NCBI RefSeq assembly: GCF_002218065.1
Contig: NZ_BDUB01000001.1
Coordinates: forward strand, 1,251,567 to 1,315,566
Source: Nodularia sp. NIES-3585
Lineage (GTDB): Bacteria; Cyanobacteriota; Cyanobacteriia; Cyanobacteriales; Nostocaceae
Reading direction: 5' to 3'
Length of the DNA stretch: 64,000 bases
Part shown: positions 3,319 through 57,067 of the stretch, one piece after another
Layout: each line of letters starts with the position of its first letter
Position numbering within the stretch: position 1 is the stretch's first letter
Notes under the pieces: generated by a model
Database searches by the model: none
What the model saw: the letters and a program-made list of their open reading frames with translations, nothing else
What the model was told of the DNA's origin: nothing
Made by a program: the position numbers and the translations under genes

Positions 3319-4158
3319 ATGCGCCGAGATTCCATATTTTATCAACTATTTCAACAATCTCCGACATTATTATTTGAACTGTTGACAAATCCGCCAGCAA
3401 ATGCACAGGCATATCGCTTTGATTCTGTAGCTGTCAAAGAACCCAAGTTTGAAATTGACGGGGTATTTTTACCACCAGAAAATGAAAGTCCGGGTGTGGT
3501 GTATTTCTGTGAAGTGCAGTTTCAAAAAGACGAAAAACTCTATGAAAGAGTATTTGCCGAATCCTCATTATATTTCTATCGCAACAGTGACAGATTTAGC
3601 GATTGGCAAGCAGTGATAATTTATCCATCACGCAGTATTGAACAAAGTAATATTTATCCCCATCGTGGCTTTCTGAATAGTAACCAAGTGCATCGAGTGT
3701 ATTTAGATGAATTGGGAGATATTCGTCAATTACCTCTATGGGTAGCATTGATGGTATTAACCACTGTAGATTCAGAACAAGCACCCTCTGAAGCTAAGTA
3801 TTTACTTGAACGTTCCGCTTGCGAGGAAGCAGAAACCGCAAGTAGCGCCATAATTGAATTAGTTACCACAATCATGGTGTACAAGTTTGAAAAATTAAGC
3901 CGCAGGGAGGTTGAAGCGATGCTAGGAATCACACTCAAAGAAACGCGAGTTTACCGGGAAATTAAGGAAGAAGGTCGAGAAGAAGGAGTACAAAGAGAAA
4001 GATCCTTCATACTGCGACTCCTAACTCGACGAGTGGGAGAATTACCTCAAGATGTGCGCCAGCGTGTTGAAACTCTCTCTTTAGAAGAATTAGAAAATCT
4101 GGGCGAAGCCTTGCTTGATTTTAGCAGTATGGCTGATTTGCAGTCGTGGTTAGACTAG
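3319..4158 (+). CDS. Rpn/DUF2887-family PD-(D/E)XK nuclease-like protein
   Basis: The 279-residue protein matches the cyanobacterial DUF2887 group of Rpn-type, transposase-like proteins. Family features are the start RRDSIFYQLFQQSPTLLFELL and the core FEIDGVFLPP followed by VVYFCEVQFQKDE, where the Asp and the E-x-Q residues fit a PD-(D/E)XK-like active site. A helical C-terminal tail contains a charged REIKEEGREEGVQRERSF segment. Related Rpn proteins are DNA nucleases that stimulate RecA-independent recombination; activity of this copy is an inference. The gene stands alone, facing thrS tail to tail. Such genes are often present in many copies in cyanobacterial genomes. Confidence 0.8.
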   Translation: MRRDSIFYQLFQQSPTLLFELLTNPPANAQAYRFDSVAVKEPKFEIDGVFLPPENESPGVVYFCEVQFQKDEKLYERVFAESSLYFYRNSDRFSDWQAVIIYPSRSIEQSNIYPHRGFLNSNQVHRVYLDELGDIRQLPLWVALMVLTTVDSEQAPSEAKYLLERSACEEAETASSAIIELVTTIMVYKFEKLSRREVEAMLGITLKETRVYREIKEEGREEGVQRERSFILRLLTRRVGELPQDVRQRVETLSLEELENLGEALLDFSSMADLQSWLD

Positions 4159-10899: not shown

Positions 10900-12169
10900 T
10901 AGCCAAAGTTCCAGTTAAAGGTATATGTCAATCAAGTCAAACAATTTTAGATTTTGGATTTTAGATTTTAGATTGACTGCACCCATAAAGGGATGCAGCT
11001 TGGGGATTTTGGATTGACGTTAGCGAAGCGTACGCAGCGCAGCGAGTATTTTAGATTTGTTCCACCCACCAGGGGTGGGGCTTGTACCAAAAATCATCCC
11101 AAATCCAAAATTCGGAGGGTCAACGGGTAAAAGTGCTTCTAAAAGGGAGTTTCAATCTTTTGGGGTCAAATTTAAATACACATATTTTGGCAAAGGCGGA
11201 GACAAAAAATTGATCATAAATCTTTATCAGATTATATTTTCTATATCTAAAGTCAAGGCTGAAAAACGGTGATTTTCAGCTAATTCATCTAACTCTAAAC
11301 CTTCTCAGTCCTCATAGAAAGAGAATACTTAGCCAAGATGGTAAAGTTGCAAATGAGTACAATTTTACTTAGCGATTGAGTCCAGCAATCCTATGAATTT
11401 ATTTAAATTATTGTTGTATATTATTAAACAAATTTATGCAGCAGGCTGCTTTAACTAAAGTACTACTTTTTCAGAATAAGGCATTTATTAAGTCCTCATG
11501 GACTAAATGCTTTGCCAACATTTGTAATCACAAGATTTTTCCTGTTTAAGCAACAAGATTAACTAAGGGGTTTAAATTTAAATCAGTTATTTTATAGTAA
11601 GATTTTAATGAAGCGCGGGTGTAAAAACATGATAACTTGGATAGCGTAGCCAAAGAAAGAATTAACCACAAATCAATTTGTAGTTACCACATTAGAAAAT
11701 GCTATAAATTGTCATAGGTATAGGTACTAAAATATTTGCCAAAAAGTTGATAAAATTAGCGCCAAAGAGAAATTTAAACTAGCTCATTTTGTGTTCCTGA
11801 GCGATTTTACGCAAATAAACTTCAGCTAAGGTTGATATCAGAGCGGTCTGTTGAATGTATATTGAGCTTAGTAGTTTATGATTTTAAACCTGATGATGCC
11901 AGGAAAAGGAGCAAAAAACCTTCAAAATAAATATCAAGACAAATGTAGCAAAATACTTCTATATCCCAGAATATGACCAATAAATATGCTATTTTTGTTG
12001 GTCTAGTTATGGAGATTTTTCCAAAACTGTCACTACCTTTGTGAAAAATGTTGTTCAAGATTCTTTACATATTTCAACTGTCTGCTGCACTTGAGAGTCC
12101 GTTGTAATTTGTACAATGCAGCTATGACTTGAATCTTTTTTGTGATTGGGCTTTTCTTTAACGATATTC
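10900..12169. other. 1.27-kb gene-free region with short repeats
   Basis: No supported gene. About 10940-11110 carries TTTTAGATTTTGGATTTTAGA-type repeats, a small hairpin (CTGCA..TGCAG near 10977-10999) and a GTAGCG/GCAGCG-rich palindromic block near 11020-11045. From about 11280 the DNA is strongly AT-rich without coding character. It may hold the promoter of the downstream kinase gene or an unrecognised RNA. Confidence 0.55.
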
Positions 12170-14933: not shown

Positions 14934-16448
14934 ATGATGTTCCCCGATTTTTCTGATTTTTCTCAGCTCGCTTTACAAGGTAATTTTGTCCCGGTGTATC
15001 AGGAATGGGTAGCAGACCTAGATACGCCTGTGTCAGCTTGGTATAAAGTTTGTGCTGGTCAGCCTTATAGTTTTTTGCTGGAATCAGTGGAAGGCGGGGA
15101 GAAAATCGGACGTTATAGTTTACTCGGTTGCAATCCGCTATGGATTTTATCAGCTAAGGGTGACACTACAACTCAGACACATCGAGATGGTTCCCAAGTT
15201 GTCTTTGCAGGTGACCCATTTACAGCTTTAGCTGAATGTCTGGAACCTTTTAAACCTGTGACTTTACCCCAACTACCGCCAGGAATTGGGGGATTGTTTG
15301 GATTTTGGGGCTATGAATTGATTCGGTGGATTGAGCCACGTGTGCCAGTTCATCCACAAGATGAGCGTAATATCCCTGATGGATTATGGATGCAGGTAGA
15401 CCACCTGTTGATTTTTGACCAAGTGAAGCGGAAAATTTGGGCGATCGCCTACGCAGATTTACGTGATCCGGAAGTAGATTTGCAACAGGCTTATGAACAA
15501 GCGTGCGATCGCGTTACCCAGATGTTGTGTAAGTTATCTCTACCTGTGTCGCCACAAAAAACTATTTTAGAATGGACTCCCCCAGGAACGCAGAATGTCG
15601 GGGGAATAGAGGCATATACCAGCAATTTCACTCGCCCAGAATTTTGCGCCAGTGTGGAAAAGGCTAAAGAATATATTAAAGCTGGTGATATTTTCCAAGT
15701 AGTAATTTCCCAGCGTTTATCAACAGAATATACAGGCGACCCCTTCGCCCTTTATCGTTCCCTGCGCCAGATTAATCCTTCGCCTTACATGGCTTTCTTT
15801 AACTTCCAAGATTGGCAAATTATCGGTTCCAGTCCAGAGGTGATGGTCAAAGCCGAACGGGATGCAGATGGTGGGGTATTAGCCACAGTCCGCCCCATTG
15901 CAGGGACACGTCCACGGGGGAAAACGACGAAGGAGGATGCAGCTTTCGCTGAAGATTTACTCCAAGACCCCAAGGAAACTGCGGAACACGTGATGCTAGT
16001 TGATTTAGGGCGGAATGATTTGGGGCGGGTTTGTGAAAGTGGTAGCGTCAAAGTTGATGAATTAATGATCGTTGAGCGTTATTCTCATGTCATGCACATT
16101 GTGAGTAATGTGGTGGGTAAGTTAGCACCAGATAAAACGGCTTGGGATTTACTCAAGGCTTGTTTCCCTGCGGGGACTGTGAGTGGTGCGCCTAAAATTC
16201 GGGCGATGGAAATTATCAATGAGTTGGAACCGAGTCGCCGGGGTGTTTATTCTGGTGTCTATGGTTATTATGATTTTGAAGGACAATTGAATAGTGCGAT
16301 CGCCATTCGCACAATGGTATTGCAGAATAATACAGTAACTGTCCAAGCTGGTGCAGGTTTGGTGGCTGATTCTGAACCTGAGAAGGAATATGAGGAGACT
16401 TTGAATAAGGCGCGAGGATTGTTGATCGCAATTCGTTGTTTACAGTGA
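14934..16448 (+). CDS. trpE: Anthranilate synthase component I
   Basis: TrpE converts chorismate to anthranilate with ammonia from the glutaminase subunit, the first step of tryptophan synthesis. The 504-residue product has the N-terminal feedback domain (SFLLESVEGGEKIGRYSLLG) and the chorismate-binding C-domain: SPSPEV-type GSSPEVMVKAER, VRPIAGTRPRGKT, DLGRNDLGRV, CFPAGTVSGAPK and QAGAGLVADSEPEKEYEE. The LESVEGGEKIGRYS segment is typical of Trp-regulated TrpE rather than PabB. The frame is open upstream through repeat DNA, so the ATG at 14934 (or the next codon) is the best start. No glutaminase gene is adjacent. Confidence 0.93.
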   Translation: MMFPDFSDFSQLALQGNFVPVYQEWVADLDTPVSAWYKVCAGQPYSFLLESVEGGEKIGRYSLLGCNPLWILSAKGDTTTQTHRDGSQVVFAGDPFTALAECLEPFKPVTLPQLPPGIGGLFGFWGYELIRWIEPRVPVHPQDERNIPDGLWMQVDHLLIFDQVKRKIWAIAYADLRDPEVDLQQAYEQACDRVTQMLCKLSLPVSPQKTILEWTPPGTQNVGGIEAYTSNFTRPEFCASVEKAKEYIKAGDIFQVVISQRLSTEYTGDPFALYRSLRQINPSPYMAFFNFQDWQIIGSSPEVMVKAERDADGGVLATVRPIAGTRPRGKTTKEDAAFAEDLLQDPKETAEHVMLVDLGRNDLGRVCESGSVKVDELMIVERYSHVMHIVSNVVGKLAPDKTAWDLLKACFPAGTVSGAPKIRAMEIINELEPSRRGVYSGVYGYYDFEGQLNSAIAIRTMVLQNNTVTVQAGAGLVADSEPEKEYEETLNKARGLLIAIRCLQ

Positions 16449-16581
16449 AACAGCTCGCCTCTAATATTTGCTTTAGTAGTTGCTTAGGTTAGTACATCGA
16501 TAGGCGTGCTATCCCTCATCCTAATAATACTGTCTGTAAGGCTTAGTTTGTAATTTATATAAATGGTATGAGATAAAAATC

Positions 16582-19062
16582 ATGATCAAATGTTTTCTAT
16601 CACATAGTAGCAAGGACAAAAAAAGCTATGTTGAAATTGTTGCCAGAGAGTTAAGCAAAAATAATATAGTTTATGATGAATTGACTTTCGAGGAAGGAAA
16701 TCAATCACTGGAAGAAATACTTAACGGACTAGATAATTCTCAAATTTTTGTGATATTTATTTCGGAATCTTCTTTATTATCAAACTGGGTTAAGTTAGAA
16801 ATAACTAAAGCAAATAAAGCATTAGAAAATGGCGATATAAAGAGAATATTTCCAATTATCATAGACCAAAATATAACTTATAAAGATGAAAGAATTCCTG
16901 ATTGGATGAGGGAGAAATATAACCTTAAGTATATTTCTCGCCCAAAAGTAGCTGTAAGAAGAATTCGTCAAAAGCTTAGAGAACTAAGTTGGGAGCTTCA
17001 TCCTAAAAATAAAGAAAGAAATAAAATATTTGTTGGCAGAAATCAGCTAATCAATTCTTTTGAAGAGCGTATAGACGACTTTGATAAATCAACACCAATA
17101 TGTATAATCGCTTCAGGAATCCCTGAAATAGGTAGAAGAAGCCTTATAAAACGTTGTTTTATTAAATCTAATTTAATTGGTGAATATTATGAATTTCCAT
17201 CTATTAATTTAAGTTACGAAGATAGTCTTGAAGACTTTATACACAAAATATACGCTCTTGGCTTATCAGCAGAATATGATTTAACTAATTTTATGAGTAA
17301 GTCAATAGATGAAAAACTTTCTATAGCTATTAAAATCGTAACTGATATTCAAAACTCTAAAGAAATTATTTCTATTGTAGACAATGGATGTATTGTTACA
17401 TCTGAAAGAAAAATTAATAACTGGTTTTTCAGACTTATAGAAAGAGTTGAATATGTAAAAACATTGACTTTTGCGATTGCATCTAATTATCGATTATTGA
17501 AACATACTATACATAATAAAGAGAGTATATACAGTCTTGAAGTACCTGAACTAGAGCGCAAAGAAAGAAATGGTCTACTCAAAAGATATTCTGAATTTGA
17601 GGATCTGAATCTAAGCAGTGATGATTTAGCATTTTTCTCTGATTTATTAAGTGGATATCCCGGACAAGTTTTTTATGCTGTAGATTTAATAAAAGATTAT
17701 GGCGTGAATAGAGCTAAGAAAGAATCTTCACAAATAGCAGAATTTAGCTCTAACAAAGCACAATTACTCTTGAATAGATATGAAAATGATTCAGAAAAAT
17801 TAGATTTTCTTTATCTATTATCAGAATTTGATTTTATTAACTATGAATTTATATTTGATATAGTTGAAGAAAACCAGCAATTTGGCAAAACTCTTGATGA
17901 ATTTATTGCTTTTGCTGTATGTGAAACTTTGGGTGCAAATGGGGAATATATTAGAGTTAATGATACTATTAGAGATTATGTTAGAAGAAATAGATTTTCT
18001 CTTCCTAAACAATATGAAGAAAAGTTGCGTAAACATTTAGATAAATTTCTAGAAACTTATACAGAAGAACAAAAAGATGTGCCTGATTACCTTTATTCAT
18101 TAAAGCAAGCTTTGATAGAAGGTAAAGATATTGATAGTAAATATTTGATACCCTCACATTTTCTAAAAACGATGAAAGAACTGTATGATAGACATTATCG
18201 TTATGAAGATGTAGTAAAGCTAGCTGACCAAGTTTTAGCTAATGAAGTTGCGCTAGATATCAAGCTTAAACAGGAAGTAAGATATTATCTTTGTGCTTCT
18301 TTAGCACGTCTCCGAAAAGATAAAAGGTTCTTAGATGAAGTGCATAAAATTCAAGGCTTTGATCATAATTTCTTACTTGGATTTTATTATCGCTTACAGG
18401 GCAGACCTCATGAGGCTCTTACTAGACTTCAAAAAGCTTTAGAGGCACAAACAAAGTCATCAAAGGTAAAGAGAGAAATCGTGCAAGTCCTTCTTGCTCT
18501 TGATGATTTTGAAAATGCTTTAGCTCTGGCTCATGAGAATTATGAAAATTATCCAACTAATCCTTTTCATATACAAGCATACTTTAATTGCATGATAAAT
18601 AGTCATTTTGTTGGAGACAAAGAAAATATAGTAAATCGTTTGTTAGATGATTTAAAAAAAATAAATTCTGAGAAAGCACAAGAGATATTAGGAGTTTCAC
18701 ATTCTCAATTTGTAGCTTTCGAGAAAAATAATTTAATTGAAGCTTTAAATCTTATAGATAATGTCATTGGTAAATTTCCAGAATCCAAATACCCTAAGCT
18801 TACACGATTTGAGATATCCTTTAGGTTCAAACATATAAAAGAAATGCAAAACTCTATAAATGTATTAGAAGAACACATAAGGAAAAAGCGGATAAATAAT
18901 AATTCAGATTTGTACAAAGCATTAATACGAGCTAAATGTAAGTATTTGGCAGTAACTGGAAAACGGCAAGAAGCTATATTACTGGTAAATACTGAACTTA
19001 AAGGCTACTCTGACTCTTACAGAGATAAACTTCTAGAAAAGCTAAAAAACCTTTCTGATTAA
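16582..19062 (+). CDS. TIR-NTPase (STAND-like)-TPR protein, probable defence or signalling NADase
   Basis: The 826-residue protein begins with a TIR domain (about 1-125; IKCFLSHSSKDKKSYVEIVA). The conserved Glu of NAD-cleaving TIR domains is present as E73 in SNWVKLEITKA. A FVGRNQLINSFEERI motif (about 150-164) opens an NTPase region. Its P-loop is degenerate, SGIPEIGRRSL at 178-188, with Arg where Lys is usual, and a Walker-B-like segment reads IISIVDNG. The second half (about 480-826) is a row of helical pairs of TPR type (LGFYYRLQGRPHEALTRLQKALEA; EIVQVLLALDDFENALALAHENY). By analogy with TIR-STAND proteins, the repeats would sense a trigger, the NTPase would oligomerise and the TIR would deplete NAD+. 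That role is inferred. The gene is far more AT-rich than its neighbours trpE and purQ, which suggests acquisition by transfer. It has no partner gene. Confidence 0.85.
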   Translation: MIKCFLSHSSKDKKSYVEIVARELSKNNIVYDELTFEEGNQSLEEILNGLDNSQIFVIFISESSLLSNWVKLEITKANKALENGDIKRIFPIIIDQNITYKDERIPDWMREKYNLKYISRPKVAVRRIRQKLRELSWELHPKNKERNKIFVGRNQLINSFEERIDDFDKSTPICIIASGIPEIGRRSLIKRCFIKSNLIGEYYEFPSINLSYEDSLEDFIHKIYALGLSAEYDLTNFMSKSIDEKLSIAIKIVTDIQNSKEIISIVDNGCIVTSERKINNWFFRLIERVEYVKTLTFAIASNYRLLKHTIHNKESIYSLEVPELERKERNGLLKRYSEFEDLNLSSDDLAFFSDLLSGYPGQVFYAVDLIKDYGVNRAKKESSQIAEFSSNKAQLLLNRYENDSEKLDFLYLLSEFDFINYEFIFDIVEENQQFGKTLDEFIAFAVCETLGANGEYIRVNDTIRDYVRRNRFSLPKQYEEKLRKHLDKFLETYTEEQKDVPDYLYSLKQALIEGKDIDSKYLIPSHFLKTMKELYDRHYRYEDVVKLADQVLANEVALDIKLKQEVRYYLCASLARLRKDKRFLDEVHKIQGFDHNFLLGFYYRLQGRPHEALTRLQKALEAQTKSSKVKREIVQVLLALDDFENALALAHENYENYPTNPFHIQAYFNCMINSHFVGDKENIVNRLLDDLKKINSEKAQEILGVSHSQFVAFEKNNLIEALNLIDNVIGKFPESKYPKLTRFEISFRFKHIKEMQNSINVLEEHIRKKRINNNSDLYKALIRAKCKYLAVTGKRQEAILLVNTELKGYSDSYRDKLLEKLKNLSD

Positions 19063-19100
19063 TTTCTTATTACATCGTTGTAAAATGTGCAAAATATTAA

Positions 19101-19121
19101 AGGGTACAGCATTGCTGCACC
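19101..19121 (-). terminator. Weak terminator hairpin after purQ
   Basis: GGGTACAGC, loop ATT, GCTGCACCC forms a 9-bp stem with one mismatch. On the minus strand it is followed by a T-rich stretch (TTTAATATTTT). It lies about 40 bp beyond the purQ stop and also downstream of the TIR gene. Confidence 0.45.
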
Positions 19122-19159
19122 CCTATCTTGTTTGCTATGAAAGACGCGGAGATAAAACT

Positions 19160-19834
19160 CTACGCCAAGGCTGCTATTTTCTCTAACAAGCCTTGAAATA
19201 ATCTCAACCCATCACTACACCCCAGGGAGGCATCTGATGCCCTTTCTGGGTGCGGCATCATGCCTAAAACGTTGCCTTGACGATTACAAATGCCGGCGAT
19301 GTTGTTGAGTGAACCGTTGGGATTTTCTCCTGCATAGCGGAAGACGACTTGCTCATGCTCTTCAATGGCTGATAAGGTGGCTGAATCAGCATAAAATCGC
19401 CCTTCACCGTGGGCAATGGGTAAAGTGATCGTTTCACCCGTTGTATAGGCTTGCGTCCAATTGGTATCGGTACGCTCAACTTGCAAGGGGACGCGATCGC
19501 ATATAAAATGCAAATCTCGATTCCTCGTTAATGCCCCTGGTAACAACCCTGCTTCAGTTAATACCTGAAAGCCGTTGCAAATACCGAGGACAAACTTACC
19601 TTTTTGTGCGTGAGCAATCACCTGCTGCATCACAGGCGAGAACTGAGCGATCGCACCACAGCGCAGATAATCCCCGTAACTAAAACCACCAGGTACAATT
19701 ACCACATCCACATCAGCGATGTCTGTTTCTTGATGCCAAACCATGCGAGTCGGTTGACCCAGCAATTCTTTGGTCACATAAGCCACATCGCGATCGCAAT
19801 TAGAACCCGGAAAAACCAAAACCCCAAATTTCAT
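19160..19834 (-). CDS. purQ: Phosphoribosylformylglycinamidine synthase, glutaminase subunit
   Basis: PurQ supplies ammonia from glutamine to PurL in the fourth step of purine synthesis. The 224-residue protein is a class I glutamine amidotransferase. It starts MKFGVLVFPGSNCDRD and has the nucleophile Cys in VLGICNGFQVL (near 86) and the His-Glu pair in GMMPHPERASD near the C-terminus. It lies downstream of purS on the same strand, as is usual for the PurS-Q-L complex. The spacer between the two genes carries tandem repeats and a MITE-like element. purL is not in this window. Confidence 0.96.
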   Translation of the reverse strand: MKFGVLVFPGSNCDRDVAYVTKELLGQPTRMVWHQETDIADVDVVIVPGGFSYGDYLRCGAIAQFSPVMQQVIAHAQKGKFVLGICNGFQVLTEAGLLPGALTRNRDLHFICDRVPLQVERTDTNWTQAYTTGETITLPIAHGEGRFYADSATLSAIEEHEQVVFRYAGENPNGSLNNIAGICNRQGNVLGMMPHPERASDASLGCSDGLRLFQGLLEKIAALA

Positions 19835-55318: not shown

Positions 55319-57067
55319 CTGTATGTTATCCAGTTGTTCCTGAAATTCCTGATATGCGCGATTAATTGCTTGCATTGAATCTTTATTACTGGAATTCTTG
55401 TTAACATCAGGATGATACAATCTGGCTAATTGACGATAAGCAGACTTCACATTTTCAGGATGAGCGTCTTCATCAACACCTAAGATTTCCCACCATTTCC
55501 CAGACAAGAAATCAGGTTGTTTTTCATCACTTTGCATTTGTCGCCAAATTTTAATTACACCATGTTTCCCTCCACTTAATAGGGTTTTACCATCTGGACT
55601 AAAAGCAACGGGACTAAACCCAGTCAAAGTTTGAATTATTTCACCAGTTGGTAAATTCCAAAATTTGATTACACCGTCGCTACTGCTACTGGCGAGGGTT
55701 TTTCCGTCGGGATGAATAGCTAGGGAGACAACCGCCATTTTGTGTCCAGTTAAAATACAGCGTAATTCACCAGTTTGGAAATTCCACAGCTTAATTGTGT
55801 TGTCTTCGCTTCCACTAATGAGCGTTTGACCGTCAGGACTAATAATAACTGTCTTCCCTGCTGAATCTTGAGTTAAAATACAGGGTTCTCTCCCTGTTTT
55901 CCAATCCCAAATTCTAATGGTTTTATCTTTACTGCTACTAACCAAAATCTGACAGTCTGGACTAATAGCCACAGCATAAACTGCATCAGTATGTCCATTC
56001 AAAGTATGTTTAAGATTCCCTGTATAACCTCCCCAAATTCTAATGGTTTTATCTGTACTAGCACTAGCAATTATTCTGCCATCAGCACTATAACTAAGTG
56101 AGTTAACAAAGCCATTATGACTATAAGGAGAATTTAAATAAGAAAATGCCAGATGATATTGTTTTGTATCTAATTGCCAACTGCTGATTTTCCGGTCTAC
56201 ACTACCGCTAATAATTTGCTTACCATTAGGACTGATAGCCACAGATAACACGGCTTCTGCTTGTCCATAAAAAGTATATAAACATTTGCCAGTGTTTAAA
56301 TCCCACCAATAGACTGTTCTATCATTACTTCCACTAATAAAAGTTTGACCATCAGGAGAAATAGCTAAAGCATTAACTGCTGCTGAGTGACCTTTAAGAA
56401 TTTGTACACATCTCCAAGTTTCCGGCTTTTGGATTGTTTGTGGTACTATTTCAGGTTCAATTTTAGGAGGATGATATTTAGGAGGATCAACTTGCTTTTT
56501 CACCTTCGCTTTCAGTGCTTGTAACTCATCCTCAATTTCCCAATCGGCAAATTTTTGATTCAGATCATCACCAGATAAAAATAAATTTAACTCAATGAGT
56601 GCGGCGGAATAGTAATCCATTTGTAAGACTTTTTCTTCCATTCGTCCAAAAACCTCAAAGGGTGTTTCCTTAACTTGAGATTCGTCTAACATTTTGGCGA
56701 TACTATAAGCCGCGAGTCCCACCACTGCACCAATTCCCGCCATCGGGACTGCACCAATACCAAATGCTAAACCGACTTTTGGTGCAACAAATCCCATTCC
56801 ACCGACGACACTAGAAAATCCCACACCACCAACTGCACCAATTCCCATTGCACCAAAAGCGGCTACATCTGCCTCTGTGATGGCTTGGAAAGCACCATAA
56901 ACAGCCGCACCAGCCACAGCGCCAGCCGCAACTACGGGAGTTACCCCAATTCCTACACCGCCAAAGCCGCCGACAATTCCGATTCCGCCAACTGTGGAGG
57001 ATATACTCGCACCAGCTATACTTCCCCCGGTGATAAATGCTGCACCTGTTTGGGAGGTTGGTTTCAT
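55292..57067 (-). CDS. Glycine-rich membrane / WD40 / DnaJ-domain protein
   Basis: The 591-residue protein has three parts. Residues 1-130 are Gly/Ala/Val-rich and hydrophobic (GGIGIVGGFGGVGIGVTPVVAAGAVAGA; VVGGMGFVAPKVGLAFGIGAVPMAG), probably membrane-inserting. After a charged helical linker, seven WD40 repeats (about 225-515) carry typical ends such as SGSNDRTVYWWDLNTGK and SASTDKTIRIWGGYTG. A C-terminal J domain (525-582) has the HPD motif at 552-554 (LYHPDVN), needed to stimulate DnaK. The last seven residues come from a repeat element. It is 6 bp downstream of a lipoprotein gene. It may recruit Hsp70 to a membrane complex. Confidence 0.88.
   Translation of the reverse strand: MKPTSQTGAAFITGGSIAGASISSTVGGIGIVGGFGGVGIGVTPVVAAGAVAGAAVYGAFQAITEADVAAFGAMGIGAVGGVGFSSVVGGMGFVAPKVGLAFGIGAVPMAGIGAVVGLAAYSIAKMLDESQVKETPFEVFGRMEEKVLQMDYYSAALIELNLFLSGDDLNQKFADWEIEDELQALKAKVKKQVDPPKYHPPKIEPEIVPQTIQKPETWRCVQILKGHSAAVNALAISPDGQTFISGSNDRTVYWWDLNTGKCLYTFYGQAEAVLSVAISPNGKQIISGSVDRKISSWQLDTKQYHLAFSYLNSPYSHNGFVNSLSYSADGRIIASASTDKTIRIWGGYTGNLKHTLNGHTDAVYAVAISPDCQILVSSSKDKTIRIWDWKTGREPCILTQDSAGKTVIISPDGQTLISGSEDNTIKLWNFQTGELRCILTGHKMAVVSLAIHPDGKTLASSSSDGVIKFWNLPTGEIIQTLTGFSPVAFSPDGKTLLSGGKHGVIKIWRQMQSDEKQPDFLSGKWWEILGVDEDAHPENVKSAYRQLARLYHPDVNKNSSNKDSMQAINRAYQEFQEQLDNIQNLTPNPSP

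What the first reader, a model, noticed from the sequence alone, without database searches (positions are those of the whole stretch)
16582..19062. AT-rich TIR-NTPase-TPR gene lodged between trpE and purQ
The protein unites a TIR domain retaining the NADase glutamate (E73), a VGR/P-loop NTPase region and a long TPR-like sensor half. This is the architecture of TIR-STAND abortive-infection proteins. The P-loop is unusual (SGIPEIGRRSL instead of GxxxxGKS/T), so ATP may be bound without normal hydrolysis, or this may mark a separate subfamily. Base composition is strikingly different from both neighbours, and it has no partner gene. It is the best candidate for an undescribed defence system in this window.
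Basis: partly seen in the sequence, partly recalled or inferred. Interest (0 to 1): 0.8.

Follow-up and report, generated by a model that had tools for sequence, protein, structure and literature searches.

The report
Cyanobacterial member of TIR-NLR antiphage family
A cyanobacterium has picked up a single-gene bacterial immune receptor of an already described phage-defence family, placed between two housekeeping genes where its sister species carry other genes; it is a known kind, but its family has an unusual ATP-binding loop.

Summary
The gene is real: window 16582-19062 encodes 826 aa with an N-terminal TIR domain (E73 kept), a STAND/NB-ARC-type NTPase and TPR-like repeats, at 29% GC against 46-48% in trpE and purQ. 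It is not an undescribed system. Over its full length it matches PADLOC's TIR-NLR model (E 2.6e-197) and a solved protein, PDB 9m0n/9umd (E 1.6e-183; 38% identical). That chain is nearly identical to an E. coli protein between psu and int of a P4 satellite, the hotspot where Rousset et al. 2022 described and tested a single-gene TIR-NLR system. So this is a divergent member of a known family, probably working as they proposed: repeats sense infection, NTPase oligomerises, TIR destroys NAD+ (inferred). It is absent from four of four congeners. Homology to them ends at the trpE stop codon and resumes at or within 7 bases of the purQ stop; there they carry a two-gene helicase-like cassette or part of it. 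The odd P-loop is family-wide: arginine stands at the aligned Walker-A lysine position in 25 of 25 members covering it, E. coli's included, though a one-residue-shifted loop is not excluded. Whether the family works without normal ATP hydrolysis is open and testable.

The parts
16582..19062 (+). TIR-NLR gene, 826 aa (TIR - STAND NTPase - TPR-like repeats)
   Evidence: ORF; PADLOC TIR-NLR 2.6e-197 over 1-825; PDB 9m0n 1.6e-183 over 1-823
16582..16980 (+). TIR domain, about residues 1-133; Glu73 codon at 16798-16800
   Evidence: Pfam TIR_2 52 bits, cut-off 28, residues 5-97; E73 in 26 of 26 members, this one included
16987..18021 (+). STAND/NB-ARC-type NTPase module, residues 136-480 as modelled
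17116..17142 (+). unusual Walker A, GIPEIGRRS (residues 179-187), Arg185 at the aligned lysine position
   Evidence: R185 in 25 of 25 members covering it; residue 186 R 12, K 9, S 3, T 1
17380..17382 (+). Walker B Asp267 codon (IVDNG); following residue here asparagine
   Evidence: D267 in 23 of 23 rows covering it; residue 268 acidic in 8 of 23
18079..19059 (+). TPR-like helical repeats, about residues 500-826 (putative sensor)
16449..19159 (.). variable slot between the convergent trpE and purQ stop codons
   Evidence: main homology to congeners ends at 16448 in 4 of 4 and restarts at 19161 in 3 of 4, 19167 in the fourth; congeners hold a different cargo
19100..19124 (-). terminator-like hairpin between the gene and purQ
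   Evidence: 1 found, 1.2 expected from shuffles, so no evidence beyond chance

Best explanation
A horizontally acquired member of the bacterial TIR-NLR (TIR-STAND-TPR) antiphage family, a one-gene immune receptor. Inferred working: the repeat half binds a phage component or senses infection; this releases the NB-ARC-like module, which oligomerises; the clustered TIR domains become NAD+ glycohydrolases through Glu73; NAD+ falls and the infected cell stops growing or dies before phage are released. Shown here: architecture, match to the family, conserved glutamate, STAND-type fold, scattered spread on mobile DNA, absence from the held congeners. Inferred: trigger, oligomer, NAD+ loss, phage protection. 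The NTPase probably binds nucleotide as a structural switch with weak or no hydrolysis, because the family has arginine at the Walker-A lysine position and mostly lacks the second Walker-B acid.
For: Full-length PADLOC TIR-NLR match. Full-length match to PDB 9m0n/9umd, 38% identity. An E. coli relative, differing from 9m0n at 17 of 819 compared positions, lies between psu and int of a P4-type satellite, the hotspot where a single-gene TIR-STAND-TPR system protected E. coli against phages and where this mechanism was proposed as a possibility (PMC9122126, passages). E73 in 26 of 26 members. NB-ARC/STAND fold. Scattered occurrence in phage-type contigs, plasmids and bacterial genomes.
Against: No activity has been shown for this copy; identity to the E. 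coli protein is only 38%. TPR profile hits are below Pfam's cut-offs. Residues 27-53 of the TIR are poorly modelled. The accession of the construct tested by Rousset et al. was not seen, so that it is the 9m0n-type protein is inferred from position and architecture. No phage record of 50,697 holds a relative. On the NTPase: 9 of 25 members have a lysine one place on, at residue 186 (7 of them followed by serine), so a P-loop one residue longer with a working lysine is not excluded for those.
Confidence: 0.87

Rival explanations
1. The TIR makes a signalling nucleotide (a cyclic ADP-ribose isomer or the like) for a separate effector, as in Thoeris, instead of destroying NAD+ itself.
For: The TIR protein of Thoeris makes a second messenger from NAD+ (stated in PMC9122126). 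PADLOC reports weak ThsB matches to the TIR, 3.2e-4 and 0.013.
Against: No effector gene adjoins it here: psaD, trpE and purQ by profile, then purS-like and Fur-like ORFs (recognised by eye). In the one E. coli P4 locus opened the gene stands alone between psu and int, and Rousset et al. call it a single-gene system.
Confidence: 0.1
2. A non-defence regulator or programmed-cell-death STAND protein of the cyanobacterium itself, kept for development or stress.
For: Cyanobacteria hold many STAND proteins (recalled); the genome has two other TIR_2 matches over cut-off.
Against: Absent from 4 of 4 congeners; within the family one distant relative among 191 other genomes at E 1e-15; nearest relatives found are from proteobacterial-type genomes and viral contigs.
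Confidence: 0.04
3. A decayed or silent import, no longer functional.
For: Very low GC and hardly any shared upstream DNA with congeners; promoter-like sites no more frequent than in shuffles, 13 against 15.1.
Against: 826 codons intact; the residues E73, G184, R185, D267 and P360, the same in every member covering them, are all kept.
Confidence: 0.08

Closest known systems
TIR-NLR system of E. coli P4-like satellites (Rousset et al. 2022, PMC9122126; PADLOC PDLC03015)
   Same: Full-length collinear TIR - STAND - TPR, single gene, GRRS-type P-loop, WxxxE glutamate
   Different: 38% identity; host a cyanobacterium; sits in a chromosomal slot between convergent trpE and purQ, no satellite or phage genes seen beside it
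PDB 9m0n / 9umd ('Tetratricopeptide repeat protein', 824 aa)
   Same: Solved full-length homologue, phmmer E 1.6e-183 over residues 1-823
   Different: Nearly the E. coli protein (17 differences over 819 compared positions); its paper was not found (search for '9m0n'; '9umd' was not searched)
Plant TIR-NLRs (RPP1, Roq1, WRR4A) and Apaf-1/CED-4
   Different: 8-13% identity; canonical lysine P-loop and LRR or WD40 sensors (recalled); here arginine at that place and TPR-like repeats
Avs5 / SIR2-STAND (PMC12931631, passages read)
   Same: Effector acting on NAD+ plus STAND plus C-terminal repeats; Avs5 Walker B also has a single acidic residue
   Different: SIR2 instead of TIR; Avs5 has a canonical GPAGSGKT Walker A whose glycine or lysine changed to alanine abolishes immunity

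Membership tests
TIR-NLR (Rousset 2022 / PADLOC) | Full-length match to the family profile | tested here: met
   2.6e-197, residues 1-825 against profile 1-821 of 824
TIR-NLR (Rousset 2022 / PADLOC) | N-terminal TIR with catalytic-type glutamate | tested here: met
   TIR_2 over cut-off; E73 in 26 of 26 members; that this is the catalytic residue is recalled from TIR enzymes
TIR-NLR (Rousset 2022 / PADLOC) | Central STAND NTPase | tested here: met
TIR-NLR (Rousset 2022 / PADLOC) | C-terminal TPRs | tested here: met
TIR-NLR (Rousset 2022 / PADLOC) | Single gene, no partner | tested here: met
   only ORF of 80 aa or more in the slot
TIR-NLR (Rousset 2022 / PADLOC) | Protects against phage, NAD+ loss | not testable with these tools
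   needs the bench
STAND NTPases with canonical Walker A | GxxxxGK[ST] | tested here: not met
   GR at the aligned place in 25 of 25, K in none; K one residue later in 9 of 25, not in this protein
STAND NTPases with canonical Walker A | Walker B hhhhD[DE] | tested here: inconclusive
   D267 in 23 of 23; next residue acidic in 8 of 23, asparagine here
Thoeris | Adjacent ThsA effector | tested here: not met
   flanking genes are psaD, trpE and purQ by profile; further ORFs read by eye only
Avs (AVAST) | Match to Avs profiles | tested here: inconclusive
   no Avs model among the 6 PADLOC families reported; EfAvs5 appears among whole-model structural matches

The most novel reading that the evidence does not exclude
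TIR-NLRs form a STAND clade in which the Walker-A lysine was replaced by arginine in a common ancestor, and the switch is driven by ligand binding and a bound, perhaps never hydrolysed, nucleotide. The arginine is kept from Pseudomonadota and Campylobacterota to Bacteroidota, Bacillota and Cyanobacteria, and in the E. coli type that appears to be the one shown to protect against phage. It would be a natural, working NLR-like receptor that breaks the rule that the P-loop lysine is indispensable.
Probability: 0.36. Interest if true: 0.6.

Novelty: new member of a known kind. Interest (0 to 1): 0.36.

Why it matters
It adds a cyanobacterial member to a bacterial immune-receptor family first described from phage satellites, and shows a chromosomal slot where sister species carry a different cargo. 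Whether other cyanobacterial members are already catalogued was not established. The family-wide arginine in the P-loop makes a textbook rule of NLR activation testable in a small bacterial receptor that already has a solved relative.

Tried and rejected
An undescribed system: rejected. AT-richness as a donor signature: rejected, since 13 of 14 related loci show the gene below its flanks in GC. Donor lineage: unresolved. The window falls in an unresolved fork with a Deltaproteobacteria MAG (48%, which treekit labels Myxococcota) and others; partial Desulfobulbaceae and Thiotrichales sequences are 57% and 52% identical over the parts present. Integration signature of the gene itself: no flanking repeat that stands out, no tRNA in the window; a search for pieces of the trpE end elsewhere in the window gave one loose 20-base match at 56122, taken as chance. 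HIP1 sites: 0 in the gene, but only about 2 expected from the window rate, so no evidence. Whole-model structure searches did not show 9m0n among their listed 50 rows, nor did those with the NTPase module; the reason is not known. Paper for 9m0n/9umd: the one search by entry code (9m0n) found none, and none was recognised in the listings of the nine other paper searches, which had wider aims; 9umd was not searched by code, and absence from the held library does not mean unpublished. TIR-NLR in cyanobacteria: one search listed 6 papers holding both words; only one of them, on Asgard archaea, concerned the bacterial system by its listing, and its passage reports TIR-NLR among systems more frequent in Asgard archaea (PMC11291487). 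A review listing TIR-NLR among defence systems was seen in passages only (PMC10952713); PMC12856790 passages gave nothing on it. Viral search with the single protein found nothing; with alignments it found 2 and then 12 loci. A phage-record search found none.

Full report
Observation. The ORF 16582-19062 (+) is 826 codons, intact. Pfam places TIR_2 at residues 5-97 well over its cut-off (52 against 28 bits). Glu73 sits in SNWVKLE, the WxxxE position (that this glutamate is the NADase catalytic residue is recalled from TIR enzymes; the pairwise hits to Cat1 and other bacterial TIR structures cover that stretch). GC is 0.294 with GC3 0.184, against 0.458 for trpE, 0.457 for psaD and 0.481 for purQ; the dip covers the gene and its short flanks.

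What it is. PADLOC's TIR-NLR profile matches from end to end (2.6e-197, residues 1-825 on 1-821 of 824). phmmer finds PDB 9m0n/9umd, named only 'Tetratricopeptide repeat protein', over residues 1-823 (1.6e-183), 38% identical. A DNA search with a viral-contig copy of the E. coli type found it in 26 of 5,426 complete E. coli genomes, all on chromosomes. One locus was opened: psu ('phage polarity suppression protein'), the TIR gene, integrase, tRNA-Leu. That is the P4 psu-int arrangement of Rousset et al. 2022 (PMC9122126; passages read, not the whole text or tables). They describe there a single-gene TIR protein with central STAND domain and C-terminal TPRs that protects E. coli, including against P2-like phages but not 186cIts, and suggest that TPRs may sense infection, inducing oligomerisation and NAD+ degradation. 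The 824-aa E. coli protein differs from the 9m0n chain at 17 of 819 positions compared without gaps. I did not see the accession of the tested construct, so its identity with the 9m0n type is inferred.

The odd P-loop. Thirty sequences were put into the census and 26 kept after removing duplicate or contained copies (L066, L069, L072, L073); the window is one of the 26. Left out beforehand: the Enterococcus plasmid hit, the 52-residue L030, second fragments of two genomes (L055, L059), and the distant L074. Among rows covering each site: E73 26 of 26; G184 25 of 25; R185, at the aligned Walker-A lysine, 25 of 25; residue 186 R 12, K 9, S 3, T 1; residue 187 S or T 21 of 25; D267 23 of 23; the following residue acidic in only 8 of 23; P360 of the GxP motif 23 of 23. 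Some rows are close kin, so these are not independent events. The distant L074 (27% identity), in another genus of the same cyanobacterial family, also reads GLPGIGRRS. The arginine is therefore old and family-wide, and the E. coli type carries it. Against the simplest reading: where residue 186 is lysine (9 of 25) a loop longer by one residue could still offer a lysine, but not here, where it is arginine. By contrast, alanine for the Walker-A lysine of Avs5 abolishes immunity (PMC12931631, passages). In the model R185 begins the helix after the loop that follows strand 174-178, where the lysine would sit.

Distribution. In 40 genomes of the relatives search and in 386 drawn from the phylum (the window's own counted in both) only the window's own has a full-length match; the other 3 of 40 and 9 of 386 hits are short stretches, TIR-like or in one case TPR-like (in one search at most two candidates per genome were scored). 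In 192 genomes of its family, 2 hit at 1e-15: itself and G1302 with L074. In 395 genomes of the phylum of the Desulfobulbaceae MAG 1 hit, the centre itself; in 369 of the class of a gammaproteobacterial MAG 2 hits, one the centre. Genome contigs gave 12 loci out of 106 stretches matching a pattern, titled Pseudomonadota, Campylobacterota, Deltaproteobacteria including Desulfobulbaceae, and one Pseudobutyrivibrio MAG; several are partial. Viral contigs gave 12 loci out of 104 stretches. Plasmids gave 4 of 72,556 records, three covering 80% or more at 24-38% identity, and phage records none of 50,697. These searches are not exhaustive. The tree leaves the window in an unresolved fork.

The slot. 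The trpE and purQ 3' ends face each other. In the four held congeners trpE and purQ are 93-98% identical proteins, but the main DNA homology stops at the trpE stop (16448) in four of four and resumes at the purQ stop (19161) in three of four, and at 19167 in the fourth. One exception: a second, shifted copy of the trpE end in G003 matches window 16431-16463, 15 bases past the stop, at 88%. The stretch between the genes measures 2.7 kb here, about 4.8 kb in G004 and about 7.2 kb in G001 and G002; in G003 the two genes lie on different contigs. G001, G002 and G003 hold a 1201-aa helicase-like protein and a 1003-1010-aa protein; G004 keeps the second and a 247-aa remnant of the first. Of the G001 pair, the first has weak AAA and helicase matches and the second none in Pfam or PADLOC. 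The helicase-like protein is absent from the window's genome; the second was not searched there. The pair occurs side by side on 6 plasmids typed as conjugative, from Trichormus, Aulosira, Microchaete, Tolypothrix and Nostoc. Thus the slot holds one cargo or the other in these five genomes; that the TIR-NLR came in after the species split, or replaced the cassette, is inferred.

Verdict. What remains of interest is the family-wide arginine in the P-loop of a family with a member shown to defend E. coli, and the alternative cargo at this locus.

Noticed in passing
L046:2357-9202 (G001), also L047, L048, partly L045: trpE-purQ slot of congeners: Two-gene minus-strand cassette: 1201-aa P-loop/helicase-like protein (weak PADLOC mad8 match) and a ~1004-aa protein without Pfam or PADLOC match; same pair on 6 cyanobacterial plasmids typed as conjugative. 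Uncharacterised as far as searched, possibly defensive.
   Followed up: partly
L048 (reverse strand), oriented 2701-2733 and 3389-3453: In G003 pieces of the trpE 3' end recur twice downstream of trpE (33 bp at 88%, 65 bp at 97%), around an 81-aa ORF and a broken frame that resemble toxin-antitoxin remains (resemblance recalled, not tested).
   Followed up: partly
L045-L048 just after the trpE stop: A short GCAGAGGCGCAGAG-type repeat follows trpE in the congeners (diverged in L046) but not in the window.
   Followed up: no
L074:1444-4074 (G1302): A distant TIR-STAND-repeat protein (876 aa, 27% identity over residues 2-628) in another genus of the same cyanobacterial family, also with a GRRS P-loop.
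   Followed up: partly
L026, L073 (and L072, which runs off its contig): Desulfobulbaceae-type copies (61% over residues 1-241) end in a stop after about 273 residues in a genome contig and a viral contig.
   Followed up: no
L031:8001-14942: In a viral contig of about 60% GC, a TIR-NLR (35% GC) lies near a C5 DNA methyltransferase-like and a Vsr-like ORF (recognised by eye, not searched).
   Followed up: no
window 11000-11999: A second, weaker AT-rich dip (GC 0.331) upstream of the histidine-kinase gene.
   Followed up: no
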